Of a stretch of 64,000 nt of DNA, positions 54,474 through 64,000 are shown in pieces. The position numbers were made by a program, and so were the translations under genes. This DNA comes from Tabrizicola sp. (lineage in GTDB: Bacteria > Pseudomonadota > Alphaproteobacteria > Rhodobacterales > Rhodobacteraceae), in assembly GCF_030373185.1 (NCBI RefSeq), contig NZ_JAUCZH010000005.1, forward strand, positions 1 to 64,000, read 5' to 3'. Under the pieces are notes generated by a model that saw only the letters and a program-made list of their open reading frames with translations, was not told where the DNA came from and ran no database searches. Each line of letters starts with the position of its first letter. Position 1 is the first letter of the stretch.

Positions 54474-54604
54474 TATCTGCGCAAGCAGATGAAATCATGC
54501 GGGAAGTTCCCCAGAAAGCCGGCTTTCACCGGATGGAATCCGCATTTGCCGATTGCTTTTCGGCCCTACATGGCGACAAAACGATCAGGGGATCGGGGGG
54601 TCTG

Positions 54605-57600
54605 ATGGGGTTGAGCGAAGCGGTTGAGGGGCAGCGACGTCAGGTCACTGTTCTTTTCGCGGATATTGTCGGGTTCACCAATATCGCCGAAACGCTTGGC
54701 GAAGAAGGTGCGTTTGACCTTGTCCGCGATCTGACCACTAACATGACAACAATCGTCTCGGCCGAACGGGGGACAGTGCAGGAATTCCGTGGCGACGGGA
54801 TCATGGCCCTGTTCGGCAGCCCGATTGCGCTGGAAGACGCGCCGCTGCGGGCCTGCCGGACGGCGTTGAAGCTGCAACACATGCTGCGCGATATCGCACC
54901 GCGTTTGCAGGCGCGCTATGGGTTCAGCCCGCAAGTGCGCATCGGTATCCATGCCGGCCCCGTCATCATGGGGGAGGTGGATGATCAGCGTCAGATGCGG
55001 ATGACGGCCATCGGTGACACGGTCAACATCGCCGCACGGCTTCAGGTCGAGGCCGCGCCCGGTGAAAGCCTGATCAGCGAGGTGGTCGCCGGGCAAGTTG
55101 CCGGGCAGGTCGAATTGACCGGTATGGGGGAACGCGCCATTCGCGGGAAATCCCAGCCGATGCAGATCTTGCGGCTGGACGGACTGATCGCCTCTGCCTC
55201 GCGCTTTGATGCGGCGCGGCGGCAGGGGCTGACCTCGCTGGTCGAAAGAGAGCCGGAGCTCGCCCGGCTTGAGGCGCAGCTTGACCGGGCGCGGGGCGGG
55301 CGGATCGAGTTTGTGAACATCGTCGGTGATGCCGGAATTGGCAAATCGCGCCTGATGTATGAATTCCGCAGGCAGCACGAAAAGGACGGTCTGCTGATCC
55401 TTGCGGGCGACTGCATGGCAGACGGGGTCAGCTCGGCTTTCTTGCCCTTTGTCGAACTGGTGCGCACCAGCTTTGGTATCCGCAAATCCGATACCGCCGA
55501 AACGACCGACCGCAAGTTGCGGGCCGGGCTTCAGCAGATCGGCTTCGATATCGATGCCAGTGTGCCGTATCTGATGACCCTGCTGGGCCAGAAGGATTCC
55601 TCAGGTCTTCTGGCCGGTCTGAGCGCCGACCTTATCGGCGTCAGGATGCGTCAGCTGCTGAAAGACCTTCTGTGGCACAGCTGCCGCGACCGCCCGGTCA
55701 TTCTGTTTGTCGAGGATCTGCACTGGATCGACCCGGGTTCAGAACAGCTTTTGCAGCGCATTGCCGCCGCCGCTGATGCGGCCGCCGATGCGGTGCCGCT
55801 TCTGGTGGTTTGCGCCTTTCGGCCCTATTACGCCCCGCCATGGGCCGAGCGTGCCAATGTCATCCGCCTTGCGCTTGGCCCCTTGACCAATGACGGCACG
55901 GTGCAGCTTCTTTCGGAAAAGCTGGGGGTCAGCGACCTTGGGGCCGAACTGGTGCGGCTTGCCGTGGAAAAGATCGAAGGCAACCCGCTATACGCCGAAG
56001 AGATCGCCAAATTCCTGAAATCGCGCCGCAGCGACCTGCCGGATCAGGGCCCGTCGCCGCCCGGGATCGTCTTGCCCGCCAACCTTCAGAACCTGATCAT
56101 GGAACGCTTTGATCAGCTTGACGAACAGACCCGGTCCGTCCTGCATGCGGCCTCGGTGGCGGGCCGTCGGTTCAAATCCGACCTGATTGCCGATGTGATG
56201 GGCCGCACCGTTCCAGTGGAGCTTTGTCTGGCCGAGGCAGAGCAGCTTGAAATCTTGCACCGCGTAACCGGGCCTGACGCAGATTTCATCTTCAACCACG
56301 CGCTTGTGCAGGACGCCGTCTATGCCACCTTGATGACAGCGCAAAAGCGCAGTCTGCATGGCCGGGTCGGGCTGGCGCTGGAGGCCCGGTTTTCCGGCCG
56401 AGAAGCGGATATCGCCGATACGCTGGCAAACCATTTCACCCAGACCGACCTGTTTGAAAAGGCGATCACCTATCTGACGATTGCGGGGCAGAAGAACCTA
56501 CGGATCTTCTCGCTGGAGGTGGCAGACAGCTATTTCGTTCAGGCGGTCGAGATGATGGACCGGCACGGTATCGACATCGGGGCAGAGTTCAGCGCCCAGC
56601 TTCTGTCGGACTGGCTGGAGGTGCAGCAGTGGCGCGCTGACTTTGATCGGTCGATCCGTATTTTCGAACCACGTCTGACGCAGATCGAAGACCTGTCGGG
56701 AACCCGCCGCTATGCGCAGATTCTGGCGCTTCTGGGTGTGGCCTATGTTCAGCAATACCGCTACCGCGAAGCCGACATCCTGCTTGAAAAGGCGCTTCAG
56801 GCTGGCGAGGAACGGAACGAACAGGCCGCCATCGCGCATGCCTTGCTTGGGCTTATGGTGATCGAATGTGTGCGCCCGCGAAACGGGTCGTTTGCGATCG
56901 TGAAGTCAATCTATGACCGCCTTGACGCGATGGCGTTTGAAAAGGACCAGCTATATTTCCAGACCTTTGCCCGGTTCTATCTGTCATGGAGCATGATGAT
57001 CCGCGGTGATCTGGACCCGTCGCTTGCACTGGGCCTTGGCACGATCGAGATCGGCCACCGCGAAAACTATCCGGGCGCCATCGGTTTTGGTTCGACCGCC
57101 GCCGCCTATATCGAATGCATCTGCGAAAACTTCGATCGCTCCATCGCCTATGCCGAAGACGGGGTCAGGCTTGCGGGCGGGATCGTGGACAAGCTGATCT
57201 GTCTCAGCATGAAGGGGTTGTCACTGACCCTTGGTGGACGCGCCGCTGAAGGGCTTGATCTCTTGCTGGATGTCCGCCGCCAGTTGGAAGAGATGCGATA
57301 TCTTAGCCTTTTCAACATTGTCGACATGCCGATCGGTCTGGCGCTGGCCTCAGTCGGGGATCTTGAAAAGGGTCTGTCTTGGCTGGATCGGGCGGCCCTT
57401 GACCATCTGGACCACAAGAACCCGCACGGTGCTTGCGTGACCAACTTCGTGGCGGGAGAGATCTACCGTCAGATGGCCTCGGGCAAGGAAAAACCCAGCG
57501 CAGACCTGCTGCGGCGCAACTTCTGGTTCCTGATTCGCCGCTTGCCCTTTGCCCGCCGCCACGCGCTGCGGCACTATGATCAAGCCATATCTATCGGCAG

Positions 57601-57784
57601 GCAGGCGGCGCTGCATGGCGTGACGGCGCAGGCGATGCTGGGCAAGGCCCGGATCCAGCGGCTGGCACGGCAGCCCGACGCCGCGCAACAGACCCTTGCC
57701 GCAGCGCGGGACGAGCTGTCGCATGTCAGCTGGTCGTGGCTTGAACACCAGATCGCGGCGGAAGAAGCCAGCCTCAGGCGTTGA
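54605..57784 (+). CDS. Class III nucleotide cyclase - AAA/STAND ATPase - TPR protein
   Basis: A 1059-residue cytoplasmic protein. Residues ~12-190 form a class III cyclase domain with both metal Asp residues (D20 in VLFADIVGFT, D64 in FRGDGIMALFG) and GDTVNIAARL. The position that usually carries the adenine-selecting Lys is Glu (QEFRGD) and the second purine position is Thr, so ATP versus GTP use is unclear. A P-loop ATPase follows (GDAGIGKSRL near 258; ILFVEDLHWID near 370), then TPR-like helices to the end. Start 54605 follows a G-run; ATG 54533 is an alternative. Its 3' end overlaps the convergent lipoxygenase gene by 11 bp. Confidence 0.85.
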   Translation: MGLSEAVEGQRRQVTVLFADIVGFTNIAETLGEEGAFDLVRDLTTNMTTIVSAERGTVQEFRGDGIMALFGSPIALEDAPLRACRTALKLQHMLRDIAPRLQARYGFSPQVRIGIHAGPVIMGEVDDQRQMRMTAIGDTVNIAARLQVEAAPGESLISEVVAGQVAGQVELTGMGERAIRGKSQPMQILRLDGLIASASRFDAARRQGLTSLVEREPELARLEAQLDRARGGRIEFVNIVGDAGIGKSRLMYEFRRQHEKDGLLILAGDCMADGVSSAFLPFVELVRTSFGIRKSDTAETTDRKLRAGLQQIGFDIDASVPYLMTLLGQKDSSGLLAGLSADLIGVRMRQLLKDLLWHSCRDRPVILFVEDLHWIDPGSEQLLQRIAAAADAAADAVPLLVVCAFRPYYAPPWAERANVIRLALGPLTNDGTVQLLSEKLGVSDLGAELVRLAVEKIEGNPLYAEEIAKFLKSRRSDLPDQGPSPPGIVLPANLQNLIMERFDQLDEQTRSVLHAASVAGRRFKSDLIADVMGRTVPVELCLAEAEQLEILHRVTGPDADFIFNHALVQDAVYATLMTAQKRSLHGRVGLALEARFSGREADIADTLANHFTQTDLFEKAITYLTIAGQKNLRIFSLEVADSYFVQAVEMMDRHGIDIGAEFSAQLLSDWLEVQQWRADFDRSIRIFEPRLTQIEDLSGTRRYAQILALLGVAYVQQYRYREADILLEKALQAGEERNEQAAIAHALLGLMVIECVRPRNGSFAIVKSIYDRLDAMAFEKDQLYFQTFARFYLSWSMMIRGDLDPSLALGLGTIEIGHRENYPGAIGFGSTAAAYIECICENFDRSIAYAEDGVRLAGGIVDKLICLSMKGLSLTLGGRAAEGLDLLLDVRRQLEEMRYLSLFNIVDMPIGLALASVGDLEKGLSWLDRAALDHLDHKNPHGACVTNFVAGEIYRQMASGKEKPSADLLRRNFWFLIRRLPFARRHALRHYDQAISIGRQAALHGVTAQAMLGKARIQRLARQPDAAQQTLAAARDELSHVSWSWLEHQIAAEEASLRR

Positions 57785-59336
57785 TATTGGCGTCGATGGC
57801 TGACGGCCTGATCAGCCACGGGGCAGCGTTGTGGGGATAGGCCGGGTCGTCATAGCGTTTGTCCAGCGCCAGAAGCTCGGCCTGGAACTGCCGGAACAGC
57901 GCGGCTCCGGTGGCATCAAGGCCCATGTCGCTGAAATCCTGCGCCAGTTTGGCGCGGCGGACGTTCAGGTTGAAATTGGCATTCAACAGCCGCTGATAGA
58001 TGTCCACCGGCAGGCGGCGCTGGTCGGTGTAGACCCGCACCGGATTGCGGTCGACCCAAAGCTGGTAGTTCCACATCACGCTGCCCAGTGCTTCGTGCTG
58101 CACCGCCGCCATGTAGATCAGCCCACCGATGAGCCGCGCCAGACCGGCCTTTGTCAGATCAGCCGCTGTGATCGGGCCAGATACCCGTTCTACCCCGTTG
58201 GGAATGGCCGCCTCCAGCCCGGCCAGCCAGTTGATCACCACGCCATCGGCGCGCAGATCGGCGTCGGTCGGGTAGTATTGGTCGATATAGCGGGCTGCAT
58301 GGGCGTGCATCACGTCGTAAAGCTCGACCAGATTTTGCTGGACGGGTGACACAAGGTTCATCCCGGAAAGCCTGCGATCCTCCCAATCAAGTTCCGGGAC
58401 GATCACGCTGATCCGGTATTTGAGATGGGTCCGCTCGAACAGATCGCACATCCCCTGATGGGTGAAGGAAAAGATCGACTCGAATTCACCCCGGGGCAGC
58501 ATCTGGCCCTTGGTCACCAGAAAGTTGCTGTTCTGCGTGCCATACATATGCGGCCAGACCAGACGGCAGATCGGATGATCGGGCGGCATCCGGTTGCGGG
58601 TCACGATTGCGAAATGCCCGCCGCAGGCAAGGTGGACCCAGTTGAAATGGCGCACCATCGACACTTGCGTCGAGGCCGCGCACATCGCAATGGCCTTTGC
58701 CCGTGGCCAGTGCGGGCTGTCGGGTGTGATCTGGCCAAGGGCGCAGTCGATCCGCACGGCGCGGACGGTTCCGGCATTGGCCGGGTCGGGCGCAAAGATC
58801 ACCCGGCAGTCGACAGGCTCAAGCCCCGGGTTCAGTTCATGGTCCTTCAGGTCCGAGAAATCCCAGACCAGATCAGCGCCATCGCGCTGCAAAAAGCAGG
58901 CATAGGGGCTGTTCAGCGCCATCCCGCCAAGATCAGGCCCGCCCGGCCCGAACAGTTCCACCGGCTTTTTCGGTTTATTCGGATAGATCGCCTGATAGCG
59001 GTCATTGAAGGCGTCCTTCAATGCCACGTCGATATCGGGGTTAATACCGGGGAGGTCCGGCTGATTGGCGGGGTAATATTTGTACATCCACTGCCGCAGG
59101 GCATAGGCGTAATGCATCTTGGCGGAATATTCATCCTCGGGGATCCGGTCGGCAACCTGGATATTTCGAACACCTATGGCAGGCTCTTTAACCACCATTG
59201 CAACGGGCTGGAGCAACGGCTTGGTTTCGGTTGGAACCGGAATCGGCAAGACCTTCTTGCCCTTGAAAATCAGGATGAACATCGAATCCCAGATGAACCT
59301 GCGAATGGTCCAGGACAGGGGAAGACTATCGGTCAT
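57774..59336 (-). CDS. Lipoxygenase-family protein with atypical iron ligands
   Basis: A 520-residue protein with the catalytic core of lipoxygenases (peroxidation of polyunsaturated fatty acids by non-haem iron). H230-x4-H235 in VRHFNWVHLACGGH, followed by HPICRLVWPHMYGTQNSN near 254-271, matches the family's HPI..L..PH...T.NIN block. The third ligand is probably H414 (AAVQHEALG). The fourth position (H+4) is Gly instead of Asn/His, and the C-terminal residue is Ala rather than Ile. No signal peptide or PLAT domain is visible. It lies 27 bp after the haem peroxidase gene in one operon. Confidence 0.8.
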   Translation of the reverse strand: MTDSLPLSWTIRRFIWDSMFILIFKGKKVLPIPVPTETKPLLQPVAMVVKEPAIGVRNIQVADRIPEDEYSAKMHYAYALRQWMYKYYPANQPDLPGINPDIDVALKDAFNDRYQAIYPNKPKKPVELFGPGGPDLGGMALNSPYACFLQRDGADLVWDFSDLKDHELNPGLEPVDCRVIFAPDPANAGTVRAVRIDCALGQITPDSPHWPRAKAIAMCAASTQVSMVRHFNWVHLACGGHFAIVTRNRMPPDHPICRLVWPHMYGTQNSNFLVTKGQMLPRGEFESIFSFTHQGMCDLFERTHLKYRISVIVPELDWEDRRLSGMNLVSPVQQNLVELYDVMHAHAARYIDQYYPTDADLRADGVVINWLAGLEAAIPNGVERVSGPITAADLTKAGLARLIGGLIYMAAVQHEALGSVMWNYQLWVDRNPVRVYTDQRRLPVDIYQRLLNANFNLNVRRAKLAQDFSDMGLDATGAALFRQFQAELLALDKRYDDPAYPHNAAPWLIRPSAIDANINA

Positions 59337-59363
59337 TGAAAACCTGCTTTCTGAATTCCTTGG

Positions 59364-62258
59364 TCAATCGGCAAAAGCCGGGTCGGCCTTTGCATCCGGG
59401 CGCGGCTCCCAGCGGGTTGAATAATGCGTCCCCCGGTCGCGCGCCCAGGGGTCAAAGCTGTTGACCACCTGCGCCAGTTCCGGCGTCAGCTCCGGGATCG
59501 TGCGCATCAGCACGCGCTTCATCGGGGCCACGTCCTGCACATGCCCGTTGACCGGCTGCGTTTCCATCATCCGTTCCGGCCCGTTGTTTTCCACCCACGC
59601 CAGACCGAAATGGCTGTAGAATTCGGGACGGAAGCTGGAGGTGAAGAACCGGTCGGAAAACAGCCGACGCGAGGCGTTGATGATAAAGATCTGGAACTGC
59701 GTTTCGGAAATGGCAAAGCCATGCGGGCGGGTGCTTTCGGCCAGATAGCCTACCACGGTGTCCAGATCCTCGACATTGTCCACCACGCTGCCGTGCGGGT
59801 GGCCAAGGCAATCGTCGGGAAAGGCGGTCTTGCCCGGCTGATCCGGCACCGGAAGTTTCATCGCATGGCTGATGATCTTGGTGCTGTCGCAGACATGCGT
59901 GCCGTAGATATCCCGCAAGGTCGCGGCCAAAGCTCGCTGCTGGGCCAGAGTCGCTGCGTCGGCTGCGTTCAGGATGGCGGCCTTTGACAGCAGGCGCTGG
60001 TCGATGAAATCATCGAAACTGGTCAGTGGACGCAACCCGATCTGACGGCGAAACTCGTTGAAGCGGGGGATGCCTCGTTCCCGGTCGCGCAAGATGTCAA
60101 GCGCGGCCACATCCATGCGCCGCCCGGGCGAGGCCGGGTCAGACAGGTCAAGGTTCTGCAAGAAGACCGGGTGGTTGCCCAAGGACAGGCTGCCCGCCCT
60201 TTGCCGCCCGAACGACAGAGCAAGATCGCGCAGGCCGATCTGGTGGACCGCCCCGGTCGCCTTGCCTCGGAATGTCTCGACCAAAGGCAGGGTGCCGGTG
60301 ATCCGGTTCGGGTCGGCCCGAAGGTTCCGAAGCTCGATCAGGTCTGGCACAAGCGTATGCAGCCGGTAGACGCTGACAAATTCCTCGGTAAAGTTGAACG
60401 GCACGCCAAAGTGGTTGGTCCCGCCGTTCGCCCAGGCCACATCCGCGACATTGCCAGGCATATCCACCGTGCCGGAACCCACAATCCCCGGCCCGGCGGC
60501 AAAGGCGGAATACCACGACGTTGCCAGTTGCGGATTGGGTGAGCCGTGCATCTTTTCGGCAATCCGTTCCAGCACATGCTTCAGCATCGGGTGACCGTCG
60601 CTTAGCCCGAACCAGTTGGAAAACATCGCCGTGCGCAGCGGTTCGTTATACAAAAGCTGCGTGGTCCATTCGGTTGTGTGGATCTTGGCAATCTCGGCCG
60701 AAACGACCAGTCGCGCGATCTGGAAGATCTCTTCATCCGTCACGGCATTGTAGCGGATCGCGTCGCCGGGCCGGTCAGGGTGCCGCAAGCCCGAGTCTTC
60801 GGACCCGTGCGCCGCCACATGTTTGCGGAACTTGTCTACGAAGATGTTGTGTTCGCGCACAAAGACGTTGTGCAGAAAGCTGGTGCCGATGGACCAGTTT
60901 TCCGGGAAACCCACCGCCTCTTGCCCGGCCCATTTCGGGTTCATCGGGTCGGGCGTGCAGTCTGGGGCGCTGTCTTCGCCACAGATTTGCAGCACGGGCA
61001 GATACTTGTCCGGGTCATCCTTTGCCGTGCGTTCCGGCACCTCGACCAGCAAAAGCCTTGCCGGGTCCGCAGGGTCACGCTTGACCCGCCCGACCGAGGT
61101 TTCGTCATGGCCGTACACCTGCGAGGCATCCCACCAGGCCGTCACCAGATTGCGCGTCGTCTTGTAGGACCGGGCCATTTCCTCACGTCCACCTGCCACG
61201 AAGGTTGGCGGGGTGCCGGTTTCGGCAAAGAGCGCCTCTTCGATCTGCATGGCCGGGTTGCAGCCAAAGGCCGCACCCTGCACGCAGCCGACAGTCTGCA
61301 ACTGGTCAGAGTTGCGCCCCTCATCCAGATGGGTGAACCAGTCATGCGTCATGAACTGGATCCAGAAACCAGCCAACACGTTCAGGGTATCGGCTTTCTG
61401 GTAATCGCAATGGGCTGCCTGACCGGAATTCAGGCCCGCGCCGTAGCCTGCGTTGCAAGCAGCGGGGTCGGACTGCTGGCGGGTGAACAGCGCGCGGCTG
61501 ACAAGCTGCGGATCAGGGGTCATCAGGTCGATCCGCCCACCATGACGCGAGGCGGCCTCGGGCGTCAGTTGCTTGTCGGGGAAGGTCGCCCCGAACTGGA
61601 CATTGCGGCCAAAGGGCATGCCGGTTGACCCCATCGCGGGGTTTGCAATGTCATTGCAGACCCCGGTGAGGGTGCGAAACCGGATCATCTCGCCATGGCA
61701 AAGCTGCGCGCCGGTCGTCTGCTCCACCCGCAACAGCGGAAACAGCGGGTCTTCGGGTTGCAGGCGCATTTCCGGCCAGACCCGCAATTCGCGGCCGTCG
61801 ATCACCGCCTTGGTCTTTTCGTTGATACGGCCCAGCGCGTAGTCACGATGGGTCAGGTTGTCGAACAGGCTGAACTTCACCAGCTCGATCCGCGCCCGCT
61901 CCAGATCGATCAGCGCCCCCATGAACCCGCGCCCGGCCTGCGTCATGATGCCAAGCAACGGATGCGCCGGGGGTGTCAGCTTGGGCAACGACTGGATATC
62001 GCCCGCCGACCAGTAGCTTTGCCAATCCACCCAAGGTGTCTTCTGAATCAGCGCGTAGTCCGCCCCGCCCCGGCAGGCCCCCGCCGCAACGTCCGCCTTG
62101 CCGGCAAAGCGGTCTTCGCGGTGGTCCGCAATCGTCGGAAAGCCGCCCGCCACCATCCGCAGACAACTTGCGGCTGCGGGATCACGCCAAAGCCAGACGC
62201 CAAGACCGACCATTCCGACAGCGACAATTCCTGCCGCAAACAAGACGAGCTTTTTCAC
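59364..62258 (-). CDS. Membrane-anchored alpha-dioxygenase-like haem peroxidase (animal peroxidase superfamily)
   Basis: A ~964-residue protein with an N-terminal TM anchor (residues 2-24). Haem-peroxidase landmarks: VCNDIANPAMGSTGMPFGR, the distal-His segment WIQFMTHDWFTHLDE (His ~305), WWDASQVYG (~376), FVREHN (~466) and the proximal-His segment AKIHTTEWTTQLL (His ~527) followed by NWFGL. The latter resembles plant alpha-dioxygenase (AKIHTIDW...NWYGL), which adds O2 to C2 of fatty acids. A GTG start at 62258 is favoured because it begins the TM helix with GGAG upstream; ATG 62393 would put 45 polar residues first. Confidence 0.82.
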   Translation of the reverse strand: MKKLVLFAAGIVAVGMVGLGVWLWRDPAAASCLRMVAGGFPTIADHREDRFAGKADVAAGACRGGADYALIQKTPWVDWQSYWSAGDIQSLPKLTPPAHPLLGIMTQAGRGFMGALIDLERARIELVKFSLFDNLTHRDYALGRINEKTKAVIDGRELRVWPEMRLQPEDPLFPLLRVEQTTGAQLCHGEMIRFRTLTGVCNDIANPAMGSTGMPFGRNVQFGATFPDKQLTPEAASRHGGRIDLMTPDPQLVSRALFTRQQSDPAACNAGYGAGLNSGQAAHCDYQKADTLNVLAGFWIQFMTHDWFTHLDEGRNSDQLQTVGCVQGAAFGCNPAMQIEEALFAETGTPPTFVAGGREEMARSYKTTRNLVTAWWDASQVYGHDETSVGRVKRDPADPARLLLVEVPERTAKDDPDKYLPVLQICGEDSAPDCTPDPMNPKWAGQEAVGFPENWSIGTSFLHNVFVREHNIFVDKFRKHVAAHGSEDSGLRHPDRPGDAIRYNAVTDEEIFQIARLVVSAEIAKIHTTEWTTQLLYNEPLRTAMFSNWFGLSDGHPMLKHVLERIAEKMHGSPNPQLATSWYSAFAAGPGIVGSGTVDMPGNVADVAWANGGTNHFGVPFNFTEEFVSVYRLHTLVPDLIELRNLRADPNRITGTLPLVETFRGKATGAVHQIGLRDLALSFGRQRAGSLSLGNHPVFLQNLDLSDPASPGRRMDVAALDILRDRERGIPRFNEFRRQIGLRPLTSFDDFIDQRLLSKAAILNAADAATLAQQRALAATLRDIYGTHVCDSTKIISHAMKLPVPDQPGKTAFPDDCLGHPHGSVVDNVEDLDTVVGYLAESTRPHGFAISETQFQIFIINASRRLFSDRFFTSSFRPEFYSHFGLAWVENNGPERMMETQPVNGHVQDVAPMKRVLMRTIPELTPELAQVVNSFDPWARDRGTHYSTRWEPRPDAKADPAFAD

Positions 62259-62446
62259 TGTCGCAAGACTCCAAGGGCTTTGACGCGACGCGCAGGTAAT
62301 CACAGTTTGATGATCGTCACCAAATGATTTCCAGCGGCCTTCAATCAGAACGCCTGTGGCCTTTTTCCTTCGCAGTTGACATGGTTTAGGCATCGCTTAC
62401 GGTCAGCCTGCAAATGGCTTTTGCAGCCGGAAGGGAAACGCGGCCG

Positions 62447-63124
62447 ATGTCGAACCTTGCCGGCAAAGCCTATGCGATGAATGTGGTTACACCGATGCCG
62501 CGCTGGCATTGGTGGGTGAAATCGCTGATCTTCATCACGGTCCGCGCCATTCCGTCGCTGATGGATGGGCTGCGCGGCCTTTCCTTCATCCATTTCGCCC
62601 GTTGGGTGGTCTTGCGGTCTGACCAGTGGCCAGATCTGGGCCAACCCCGCCCGCGCAGGCTGCATTTCAATTACACGCTGTTCTGTTCTAATTTCAACGG
62701 CACATGGGACCAGTATATCGACGCCTTTTCCGATGCGATTCCGGTGATGCTCGACCTCGCCTGGTTCGGGGATTTCGACTATCCGCACTCCATCCCGCTA
62801 GAAAAGTTCCGCCGCTATATTCATCACAACCAGATCAACACCGACTATTACTATAACGCCACCCCCGGCGCGTCCGAGCGTGAGGTGAAGGCCGCGTTGC
62901 GTGTCTGGCGTGAGGTGCGCGCGCTTGAAGCTGCCCATGCAACGGCGCCACCCGAGGCCTTCGCCCGGCTTTATGCCGATGCGCTGTGCCGGGTGCAGAA
63001 CGATCTGGGCGCGCAGGGGATGGCCCCGGTGGCCAGTCTGGACACCCTTGCCGCGGCCCGAATCCGCCAGCCCCAGATCGAGGCTCACACCGGCGCAGGG
63101 CAAAAGGCGGCTGACCGGGCATGA
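62447..63124 (+). CDS. Unrecognised protein beside oxygenase operon
   Basis: A 225-residue protein that I cannot place. It starts MSNLAGKAYAMNVVTPMPRW, has a hydrophobic stretch near 25-55, then LHFNYTLFCSNFNGTWDQYI and DAFSDAIPVMLDLAWFGDFD, and QINTDYYYNATPGASE. The pattern beta strand - FNGTWD - helix - WF suggests an alpha+beta (ferredoxin-like) domain. It is divergent from the haem peroxidase gene (188 bp between starts) and overlaps the next gene by 4 bp. Confidence 0.65.
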   Translation: MSNLAGKAYAMNVVTPMPRWHWWVKSLIFITVRAIPSLMDGLRGLSFIHFARWVVLRSDQWPDLGQPRPRRLHFNYTLFCSNFNGTWDQYIDAFSDAIPVMLDLAWFGDFDYPHSIPLEKFRRYIHHNQINTDYYYNATPGASEREVKAALRVWREVRALEAAHATAPPEAFARLYADALCRVQNDLGAQGMAPVASLDTLAAARIRQPQIEAHTGAGQKAADRA

Positions 63125-64000
63125 GCAACTATGACGCCGGGCATTACTTCCTGACGGTCTTTGCACCGATCCGGACCCACCACCCGACCATCGGCACTGA
63201 TATCGGCAGCTCTCACACCATCGACCTGCGTCGTGATCTGTCACTGATGCCAACCGCCAGGCAGGACGCCGCCAGCCGTGACAGCGCGCTGGACAGTCCT
63301 TTCGCCAAGGTTCCCGGCGTTCACTTCGCGCGGTTCCTCGTGCTGGACCAACTGCCTTACAACGGGCGGCGGCCTTCGAATGCGATTTACAACCTGCTGA
63401 AGCGGGTTGATCTGGTCAGGCAACAGGCGGTGGACCATCTGGAAAACGCATGGCTTGTCATGATCATCGACATGGATGCCCCTGACGGCAGCGAAGCCAG
63501 CCTGCGCGCCTGCTCGGATCGGCTGTGGCAAGGGATGGAGCCGGAGCTGCGGCGGGTCTTTGGCCATTGCTTCGGCTTTGACGCGGCCAGCATTCAAGGC
63601 ACGGATGACTGGTTTGCCTATCTTCGCCGGTGTCAGGTCACGACCACCATGCCCTTTAACGACTACTGGACCGAGGCACCACCAAAGGCGCCGCTTTCCC
63701 GCCTGATGCTGGCAGCGGGGGCGCTGATCGCCGTTGCGGGGGCCGGGGCGCTGTGGCTGGGGTTTTGGCCCTTTGGCTGGGGCAGCCTTGTTGCCTTTGC
63801 GGTCGGGCTTTGGCTGGTTTGTGTCGTCGGGCTGATCCTGAAACTTGGCACGACACCTTTTCCGCCCGCGCCTGACAGCGATCTGGCTTCGATCCTGAAG
63901 GCGCTTTACGTTCAGGATCGGCTCAATCGCTTTGCCATGGCCCGGCAAGGCCAGACACCGGAAGACCTGCACCGCGCCTTTGGTGATTTCATCGCAGCCC
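63121..64000 (+). CDS. Unrecognised membrane protein, 3' end cut by window edge
   Basis: At least 293 residues, open to the edge. The N-terminal ~175 residues contain FARFLVLDQLPYNGRRPSNA and AWLVMIIDMDAPDGSEAS, then DDWFAYLRRCQVTTTMPFND, which loosely parallels the FNGTWD/WF/QINTDYYYN pattern of the upstream gene. Two TM helices follow near 195-240 (LMLAAGALIAVAGAGALWLG; LVAFAVGLWLVCVVGLIL). Probably inner-membrane bound, in the same place as the anchored peroxidase. Family unknown. ATGA overlap with the upstream gene. Confidence 0.65.
   Translation, partial: MSNYDAGHYFLTVFAPIRTHHPTIGTDIGSSHTIDLRRDLSLMPTARQDAASRDSALDSPFAKVPGVHFARFLVLDQLPYNGRRPSNAIYNLLKRVDLVRQQAVDHLENAWLVMIIDMDAPDGSEASLRACSDRLWQGMEPELRRVFGHCFGFDAASIQGTDDWFAYLRRCQVTTTMPFNDYWTEAPPKAPLSRLMLAAGALIAVAGAGALWLGFWPFGWGSLVAFAVGLWLVCVVGLILKLGTTPFPPAPDSDLASILKALYVQDRLNRFAMARQGQTPEDLHRAFGDFIAA

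What the first reader, a model, noticed from the sequence alone, without database searches (positions are those of the whole stretch)
57774..62258. Candidate bacterial oxylipin operon: lipoxygenase plus alpha-dioxygenase-like peroxidase
Two mechanistically different fatty-acid oxygenase families, a non-haem iron lipoxygenase and a haem alpha-dioxygenase/cyclooxygenase relative, lie 27 bp apart on one strand. The peroxidase is membrane-anchored. Plants and fungi use these enzymes to make hydroperoxide signals; both in one bacterial operon, with two unknown proteins across a divergent promoter, suggests a membrane-bound oxidised-lipid pathway in which one enzyme may make and the other convert a hydroperoxide.
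Basis: partly seen in the sequence, partly recalled or inferred. Interest (0 to 1): 0.8.

Follow-up and report, generated by a model that had tools for sequence, protein, structure and literature searches.

The report
Alpha-dioxygenase with an odd lipoxygenase-like partner
A rare bacterial gene module pairs a likely fatty-acid alpha-dioxygenase with a lipoxygenase look-alike that lacks part of the usual iron site, next to a cyclase-like signalling gene, and the same trio recurs in distantly related bacteria.

Summary
Both ORFs are real, at the stated places, 27 bp apart. The upstream one is a convincing fatty-acid alpha-dioxygenase (alpha-DOX): 12 of 14 haem and substrate residues of the rice enzyme that could be mapped are kept, the catalytic ones included. 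The downstream 'lipoxygenase' passes Pfam's cut-off but has Val for the first iron-ligand His and Gly for the Asn ligand. All 9 members found (window included; Rhodobacteraceae, Mycobacterium, one Pseudonocardiales MAG) lack both, so an iron lipoxygenase is not shown. Yet it is under purifying selection (dN/dS 0.20-0.40) and sits beside an alpha-DOX in 9 of 9 loci, while alpha-DOX often occurs without it. A cyclase-AAA-TPR protein also flanks the pair in 9 of 9. The two 'unknown' divergent genes belong to a DyP-peroxidase cassette found alone elsewhere in the family. My reading: alpha-DOX oxidises ordinary fatty acids at C2; the lipoxygenase-fold protein is its accessory, presenting substrate or handling product.

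The parts
54497..57784 (+). CYC: class III adenylate/guanylate cyclase domain + AAA_16 ATPase + TPR protein, 1095 aa; convergent with the LOX-like gene (ends overlap by 11 bp)
   Evidence: Pfam; homologue adjacent to the LOX-like/DOX pair in 9 of 9 loci; no other match in the own genome
57774..59336 (-). LOX-like: lipoxygenase-fold protein of 520 aa with an incomplete iron site
   Evidence: PF00305 above cut-off; ligand table; conserved subfamily of 9 members
58662..58664 (-). codon of Val225, at the place of the first iron-ligand His (preceded by Gln224)
   Evidence: alignments to the solved lipoxygenase 5med and to 11 other lipoxygenase-family proteins; codon checked
58647..58649 (-). codon of His230, second iron-ligand His, kept
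58095..58097 (-). codon of His414, third iron-ligand His, kept (Gly418 stands for the Asn ligand)
59364..62258 (-). DOX: alpha-dioxygenase-like haem peroxidase, 964 aa from GTG 62258 (longest ORF to 62393), with N-terminal membrane anchor
   Evidence: PF03098, PDB 4kvj/4hhr, key residues, hydrophobic segment
60357..60368 (-). YRLH: catalytic Tyr676 and proximal haem His679 (numbering of the 1009-aa ORF)
61344..61346 (-). codon of distal haem His350
62259..62446 (.). 188-bp divergent intergenic stretch between DOX (GTG 62258) and H236 (ATG 62447)
   Evidence: the sigma-70 consensus scan found no site in it
62447..63124 (+). H236: 225-aa protein with no Pfam or NCBIfam match over a curated cut-off, first gene of a DyP peroxidase cassette
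63121..64000 (+). H322: protein with two hydrophobic segments, distantly related to H236, cut by the window end (322 aa; ends at contig position 64089)
   Evidence: a DyP-type peroxidase follows at contig 64086-65726

Best explanation
It is a rare alpha-oxidation module, patchily spread over two phyla and so probably passed on horizontally (inferred). Step 1 (inferred from residues): the membrane-anchored haem protein is an alpha-dioxygenase; haem makes a radical on Tyr676, which takes a hydrogen from C2 of an ordinary free fatty acid held by its carboxylate, giving a 2-hydroperoxy acid that breaks down to CO2 and an aldehyde one carbon shorter. Step 2 (inferred): the lipoxygenase-fold protein is not a conventional lipoxygenase of polyunsaturated fatty acids. 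It is an accessory of alpha-DOX that kept the lipid-binding fold but lost half of the side-chain iron ligands; most likely it delivers fatty acid to, or takes the hydroperoxide or aldehyde from, the alpha-DOX. Step 3 (context only): the neighbouring cyclase-AAA-TPR protein regulates the pair or responds to it. Shown here: gene order, residue conservation, purifying selection, one-way dependence of LOX-like on DOX. Not shown: any activity, metal content, complex formation or signalling.
For: alpha-DOX: 12 of 14 mapped rice positions kept, among them distal His, Tyr, proximal His and the His/Arg/Thr that hold the carboxylate (residue list from passages of PMC8720084; mapping). LOX-like: 9 of 9 members lack the first Fe His (V/T/L) and the Asn (Gly) and keep the second and third His; 10 of 11 comparison lipoxygenase-family proteins keep the first His. 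The nine form one clade, 100/100 support, stem 2.35 changes per column on their side of a midpoint root. dN/dS among L007-L011: 0.20-0.40 for LOX-like, 0.30-0.49 for DOX; between phyla (L005 against L007-L011) LOX-like is 42-44% identical, DOX 35-36%. Pairing in 9 of 9 loci, co-directional in 8, divergent in L012. DOX without LOX-like: 25 of 26 Mycobacteriaceae genomes with a DOX match at E < 1e-20, and 3 genomes of the own family.
Against: No structure or assay. The second and third His and the flush C-terminus (NINA, aligned with NSISI of a complete lipoxygenase) are kept, so a remodelled metal site and real catalysis remain possible. The two mapped positions that differ (rice M325, A331) are Leu and Ser; they also vary among the other 14 DOX proteins aligned. 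DOX of L007 and L008 lack the distal haem His, so alpha-DOX activity is doubtful there, though PMC8720084 reports the distal His as only partly conserved in the family. In the window DOX is probably extracytoplasmic (N-terminal anchor, 12 Cys), whereas LOX-like shows no TM segment: a direct complex needs both on one side. The DOX identities include N-terminal parts that may not be homologous; over the longest shared stretch they are 30-31% against the window for L007-L011, where LOX-like has 41-43%. The mirror correlation of LOX and DOX distances (r 0.97, 8 loci) was not corrected for species descent.
Confidence: 0.5

Rival explanations
1. Enzyme relay with a remodelled metal site: LOX-like binds a metal through His230, His414 and the C-terminal carboxylate (perhaps with Gln224, or His in the actinobacterial members) and rearranges or cleaves the 2-hydroperoxide made by DOX, as a catalase-related lyase or P450s do for other dioxygenases.
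For: His230 and His414 are invariant and the C-terminus flush in 9 of 9 while the other two ligands are gone in 9 of 9, which looks like remodelling, not decay; a known tandem of a COX-like dioxygenase with a hydroperoxide-converting protein (Nostoc 10S-DOX with a catalase-related lyase, passages of PMC13049297).
Against: No model of the site; the residue before the lost His is Gln in the two alphaproteobacteria and His in the seven actinobacterial members, but 5 of the 10 comparison lipoxygenases that keep the first His carry a second His there too, so a shifted ligand is not shown. 85 other columns of the alignment are invariant as well.
Confidence: 0.27
2. Two true oxygenases: LOX-like is a working iron lipoxygenase and the operon makes oxylipins by two routes.
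For: PF00305 over the cut-off in the window, matched by 9 of 9 members at E up to 0.1, best 4e-14; profile similarity to solved lipoxygenases (best 3vf1 E 1e-22).
Against: Two of four side-chain iron ligands missing in 9 of 9; a published criterion for true lipoxygenases asks for both His-His and His-Asn clusters (passages of PMC6612559). From recall: these bacteria do not normally hold polyunsaturated fatty acids.
Confidence: 0.08
3. The cyclase is the point of the module: LOX-like and DOX form a lipid-oxidation sensor that sets the output of a class III cyclase, read by neighbouring cyclic-nucleotide-binding proteins.
For: Cyclase adjacent in 9 of 9 loci in three relative placements; no other match to it in the own genome; a PF00027 protein within about 10 kb in 3 of 3 non-mycobacterial loci, against a hand-reckoned expectation of 3-5% each from 7-9 such domains per genome.
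Against: 0 of 4 mycobacterial genomes searched have a PF00027 match near the locus (the other two were not searched). The transition-state Asn of class III cyclases (motif recalled) is kept only in the two alphaproteobacterial proteins and replaced in the other seven. The six mycobacterial genomes give 13-33 matches to the window cyclase, partial ones included, and the neighbour is the best match in 1 of 6. The cNMP test was chosen after seeing the neighbours.
Confidence: 0.12

Closest known systems
Plant and cyanobacterial fatty-acid alpha-dioxygenases (rice OsaDOX, Arabidopsis alpha-DOX1, CalDOX, LepDOX)
   Same: haem ligands, catalytic Tyr, carboxylate-binding His/Arg and Thr all kept; best PDB matches
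   Different: about 960 aa instead of 621-652 aa for the PDB chains; N-terminal membrane anchor, 12 Cys; fixed LOX-like partner gene; two substrate-channel positions differ
Iron lipoxygenases (PF00305; 5med, 11R-LOX 3vf1, Pantoea, Acaryochloris and Nostoc plasmid LOX)
   Same: catalytic-domain similarity by sequence; second and third Fe His; flush C-terminus
   Different: first Fe His and Asn ligand absent, C-terminal Ala/Ser, separate deep clade
Nostoc linoleate 10S-dioxygenase with its catalase-related hydroperoxide lyase (PMC13049297 passages)
   Same: a COX-superfamily dioxygenase working with a second protein that handles its hydroperoxide
   Different: the partner here has a lipoxygenase fold, and the dioxygenase is of the alpha-DOX branch; the relay is not shown
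DyP-type peroxidases (8re3)
   Same: third gene of the divergent cassette, outside the window, matches at E 1e-63
   Different: tied to two proteins of unknown family (H236, H322), one with two hydrophobic segments

Membership tests
Lipoxygenase | sequence match to PF00305 above the curated cut-off | tested here: met
   window 32 bits against 23.6; 9 of 9 members match at E up to 0.1 (cut-off not shown for the other eight)
Lipoxygenase | first ligand cluster His + His (criterion in PMC6612559 passages) | tested here: not met
   first His is Val in the window, V/T/L in 9 of 9; second His kept
Lipoxygenase | second ligand cluster His + Asn | tested here: not met
   His414 kept, Asn replaced by Gly418 in 9 of 9; the Nostoc plasmid LOX, which keeps the first His, also has Gly there
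Lipoxygenase | C-terminal carboxylate (usually Ile) as ligand | tested here: inconclusive
   C-terminus flush with complete lipoxygenases but Ala or Ser; geometry not testable without a model
Lipoxygenase | oxygenation of 1,4-pentadiene fatty acids | not testable with these tools
   needs an assay
Fatty-acid alpha-dioxygenase | distal and proximal haem His and catalytic Tyr (H157, H382, Y379 of rice) | tested here: met
   H350, H679, Y676
Fatty-acid alpha-dioxygenase | carboxylate-binding His311 and Arg559, Thr316, and Phe375/Phe552 stacking on Tyr | tested here: met
   H572, R910, T577, F672, F903
Fatty-acid alpha-dioxygenase | other residues of the rice substrate channel | tested here: inconclusive
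   W576, F900, I904, A907 kept; M325 is Leu and A331 is Ser; L53 and R57 lie outside the alignment
Fatty-acid alpha-dioxygenase | forms 2-hydroperoxy fatty acid / Cn-1 aldehyde | not testable with these tools
   needs an assay
Class III nucleotide cyclase (CYC) | two metal-binding Asp and the transition-state Asn/Arg pair (motifs recalled) | tested here: inconclusive
   both Asp and Arg in 9 of 9; Asn only in the window and G188
DyP-type peroxidase (cassette gene 3, outside the window) | Pfam Dyp_perox_C and match to solved DyP | tested here: met
   PF20628 E 2.5e-10, DyP_N below its cut-off; 8re3 E 1.2e-63 for the 3-sequence profile

The most novel reading that the evidence does not exclude
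A bacterial oxidised-lipid signalling module: alpha-DOX makes a 2-hydroperoxide or fatty aldehyde; a lipoxygenase-fold protein that has traded its oxygenase iron site for a sensing or 2-His-1-carboxylate site binds it; and a cyclase-AAA-TPR protein turns this into a cyclic-nucleotide or ATPase signal. It would be a lipoxygenase turned into an oxylipin receptor or transformer, kept across two phyla.
Probability: 0.12. Interest if true: 0.9.

Novelty: new variant of a known kind. Interest (0 to 1): 0.55.

Why it matters
Lipoxygenase annotation in bacteria leans on PF00305; here is a conserved subfamily that matches it (the window over its cut-off) but lacks ligands used to define true lipoxygenases, so claims of oxylipin capacity need a residue check. 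The one-way dependence on alpha-DOX gives a testable case of a lipoxygenase fold recruited as partner of another oxygenase, and the shared cyclase is a genomic lead to how a bacterium might couple fatty-acid alpha-oxidation to signalling.

Tried and rejected
Rejected or left open: (1) a single decayed gene or sequencing error as the cause of the missing His: 9 members from separate genomes agree. (2) A shifted His restoring the ligand: the actinobacterial His one place before is also common in complete lipoxygenases and is Gln in the window; left open, not claimed. (3) Anti-phage reading: of six proteins scanned, PADLOC matched only the cyclase domain of CYC to Pycsar cyclases (best E 4e-20, residues 37-192); the other five had no match. 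(4) H236/H322 as oxylipin genes: the cassette stands alone in 13 of 13 other loci examined. (5) H322 related to DyP: no (hhalign E 0.28); H236 and H322 are related to each other (E 2e-11). (6) Separate origin of the L012 DOX: the best tree puts it with DOX that stand alone, but one clade of paired DOX is not rejected (p-AU 0.46). (7) G003 'LOX' match: 59 aa with two stops, no hit at 1e-6 with any query; dropped. (8) Promoter and terminator scans: no more sites than shuffles. Limits: genome contigs was scanned once, with two short peptide patterns, so members may have been missed; several whole-genome searches scored only the best few first-look candidates per genome (up to 6, 4), so absences there are not complete; no myxobacterial survey; a PDB profile search of H236 found nothing at E up to 1. 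Literature: searches (22 papers listed of 22; 20 of 23; 20 of 38,627; 20 of 32; 8 of 271; 7 of 7; 8 of 8; 10 of 27) listed no title or abstract start on a bacterial lipoxygenase/alpha-dioxygenase gene pair or on lipoxygenase-like proteins without the first His; beyond the listings I saw passages of PMC8720084, PMC6612559, PMC11011848 and PMC13049297 only. Closed-access papers are not covered, so absence from print is not claimed.
Full report
OBSERVATION. Both ORFs exist as stated: 57774-59336 (-), 520 aa, and 59364-62393 (-), 1009 aa. The gap is 27 bp. Pfam gives lipoxygenase (E 6.6e-8) and animal haem peroxidase (E 8.3e-69); NCBIfam gives nothing for either at E up to 1.

THE PEROXIDASE IS AN ALPHA-DIOXYGENASE BY RESIDUES. 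Its best PDB matches are alpha-dioxygenases (E 2.5e-62 and 1.7e-59), then lactoperoxidase (1.2e-5), peroxinectin (2.4e-5) and cyclooxygenase-1 (0.003). PMC8720084 (passages) lists working residues of the rice enzyme. Through the alignment I mapped 14 of them. Twelve are kept in the window: H350 (distal), H572, W576, T577, F672, Y676 (radical), H679 (proximal), F900, F903, I904, A907, R910 (numbering of the 1009-aa ORF). Two channel positions differ (M325 is Leu586, A331 is Ser592); they vary among the other aligned DOX too. L53 and R57 lie outside the alignment. Of 15 DOX proteins compared, 12 keep those 12 positions; L007 and L008 have Gly for the distal His and L012 has Leu for I553. A hydrophobic segment at residues 49-67 supports a membrane anchor, shared by G188; the mycobacterial forms are built differently at the N-terminus, with TPR matches in L008, the one scanned.

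THE 'LIPOXYGENASE' LACKS PART OF THE IRON SITE. Alignments with solved lipoxygenases and with 11 other lipoxygenase-family proteins agree: place of first Fe His = Val225, second His230 kept, third His414 kept, Asn ligand = Gly418, C-terminal residue Ala520. Relatives were found in G188 (same family, 52% identical) and by one scan of genome contigs (7 loci: six Mycobacterium/Mycolicibacterium, one Pseudonocardiales MAG, 40-46% identical). All 9 members, window included, lack the first His and the Asn and keep the second and third His. Of the 11 comparison proteins 10 keep the first His; the exception (L059b) is itself the tandem partner of a complete one. The Asn place is Gly in the Nostoc plasmid LOX too, so that loss alone is weak evidence. 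The published criterion for true lipoxygenases asks for both clusters (PMC6612559 passages). The 9 form one clade (100/100), stem 2.35 changes per column on their side of a midpoint root. They are not decaying: dN/dS 0.20-0.40 among L007-L011, close to DOX (0.30-0.49), and 42-44% identical between L005 and those five against 35-36% for DOX (the DOX figure includes N-terminal parts that may not be homologous).

PAIRING. An alpha-DOX relative lies next to LOX-like in the window, G188 and L007-L012 and, across a contig break, in G301 (L064 with L013): 9 of 9. Eight are co-directional; in L012 the two are divergent. The dependence is one-way. In 295 genomes of the own family, LOX-like is in 2 (a third match, G003, is a 59-aa stretch with stops and was dropped) and the long DOX in the same 2; 3 others (G094, G101, G240) have an ordinary alpha-DOX and two more only weak matches (one search scored at most 2 candidates per genome). 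In 251 Mycobacteriaceae genomes, 33 have a DOX match, 26 of them at E < 1e-20, and only one of these, G296, has LOX-like; four genomes have other lipoxygenases (listed handles show the same draw, unlisted rows could not be compared). In 385 genomes of the own class only the own genome has LOX-like; two others have ordinary or divergent lipoxygenases. The same-genus genome G191 shows no match to either, as for a horizontally gained or often lost module. The family is Rhodobacteraceae/Paracoccaceae by inference: contig C5 of G094 has the length of the Qingshengfaniella plasmid. Four plasmid-borne alpha-DOX loci read (L067-L070; L070 is the G094 locus again) show no annotated lipoxygenase within up to 6 kb, but alpha/beta hydrolase, cytochrome c, FAD or GMC oxidoreductase or patatin neighbours.

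THIRD MEMBER: CYCLASE. A cyclase-AAA-TPR protein flanks the pair in 9 of 9 loci: beside LOX-like, tail to tail, in the window and G188; beside DOX, divergent, in the six mycobacteria; beside DOX, tail to tail, in L012. The own genome has no other match to it. The six mycobacterial genomes give 13-33 matches, partial ones included, and the neighbour is the top match in only 1 of 6; it is the top match in G188 and in the Pseudonocardiales genome. Both metal Asp are kept in 9 of 9, the transition-state Asn only in 2 of 9 (motif from recall), so activity is uncertain outside the alphaproteobacteria. A PF00027 cyclic-nucleotide-binding protein lies within about 10 kb in 3 of 3 non-mycobacterial cases (a Crp-type regulator in the own genome at contig 66356-67075, an ABC transporter fused to the domain in G188, a Crp-type regulator next to LOX-like in L012) and in 0 of 4 mycobacterial genomes searched; the seven genomes hold 7-11 such matches each. 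This was noticed after the fact and is only suggestive.

DIVERGENT GENES. H236 and H322 match no Pfam family over its cut-off, are related to each other (hhalign E 2e-11), and are followed by a DyP-type peroxidase. Of 295 family genomes 18 match H236, 14 of them strongly (E < 1e-79). I fetched 13 further loci of these strong matches (12 other genomes and a second copy in G188; the four weak ones were not fetched): all 13 hold H236-H322-DyP and none holds LOX-like, DOX or CYC within the 12-15 kb fetched. The cassette is also on a Granulicella plasmid. In both family genomes with the LOX-like/DOX pair a copy lies divergent to it. It is thus a separate peroxidase cassette joined to this locus.

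MECHANISM. Shown: sequence and order. Inferred: alpha-oxidation of free fatty acids by DOX; LOX-like as lipid-handling partner, with a remodelled catalytic site as main rival; a regulatory tie to the cyclase. That alpha-DOX accepts fatty acids without a pentadiene, and that these bacteria normally lack polyunsaturated fatty acids, is recalled knowledge and fits the loss of a lipoxygenase iron site.

LIMITS. No assay data. Nine members from one pattern-based scan and targeted searches. No myxobacterial survey. On rechecking, the residue count for DOX was widened from 12 of 12 chosen to 12 of 14 mapped, the cassette count set to 14 strong of 295, and the Pfam claim for the other eight members reduced; the odds did not need changing.

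Noticed in passing
window 62447-64000 (+) and contig positions 64086-65726 (L006 8087-9727): Conserved three-gene cassette H236-H322-DyP peroxidase, two proteins of no known family fixed upstream of a DyP-type peroxidase; strong H236 matches in 14 of 295 family genomes and a copy on an acidobacterial plasmid.
   Followed up: partly
   Followed up: no
L007 7612-9978 and L008 7573-9984: Mycobacterial alpha-DOX partners whose distal haem His is Gly (FMNGDW) while Tyr and proximal His are kept.
   Followed up: no
L006 10357-11076 (contig 66356-67075), L005 13536-16694, L012 11575-12339: Cyclic-nucleotide-binding proteins (two Crp-type, one ABC transporter fusion) near the module in the three non-mycobacterial loci.
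   Followed up: partly
L068 (Calothrix PCC 6303 plasmid) and L069 (Rhizobium phaseoli plasmid): Alpha-DOX genes with GMC oxidoreductase and patatin-like phospholipase, or with cytochrome c, as neighbours: other possible alpha-oxidation clusters.
   Followed up: no
L055 and L057 (genome G379, contigs C1 and C2): A Mycobacteriaceae genome with two lipoxygenases that keep the ligand residues and two alpha-DOX matches, one with a stop inside, at other places; a review passage names only Cyanobacteria and Proteobacteria as lipoxygenase-bearing phyla (PMC11011848).
   Followed up: no
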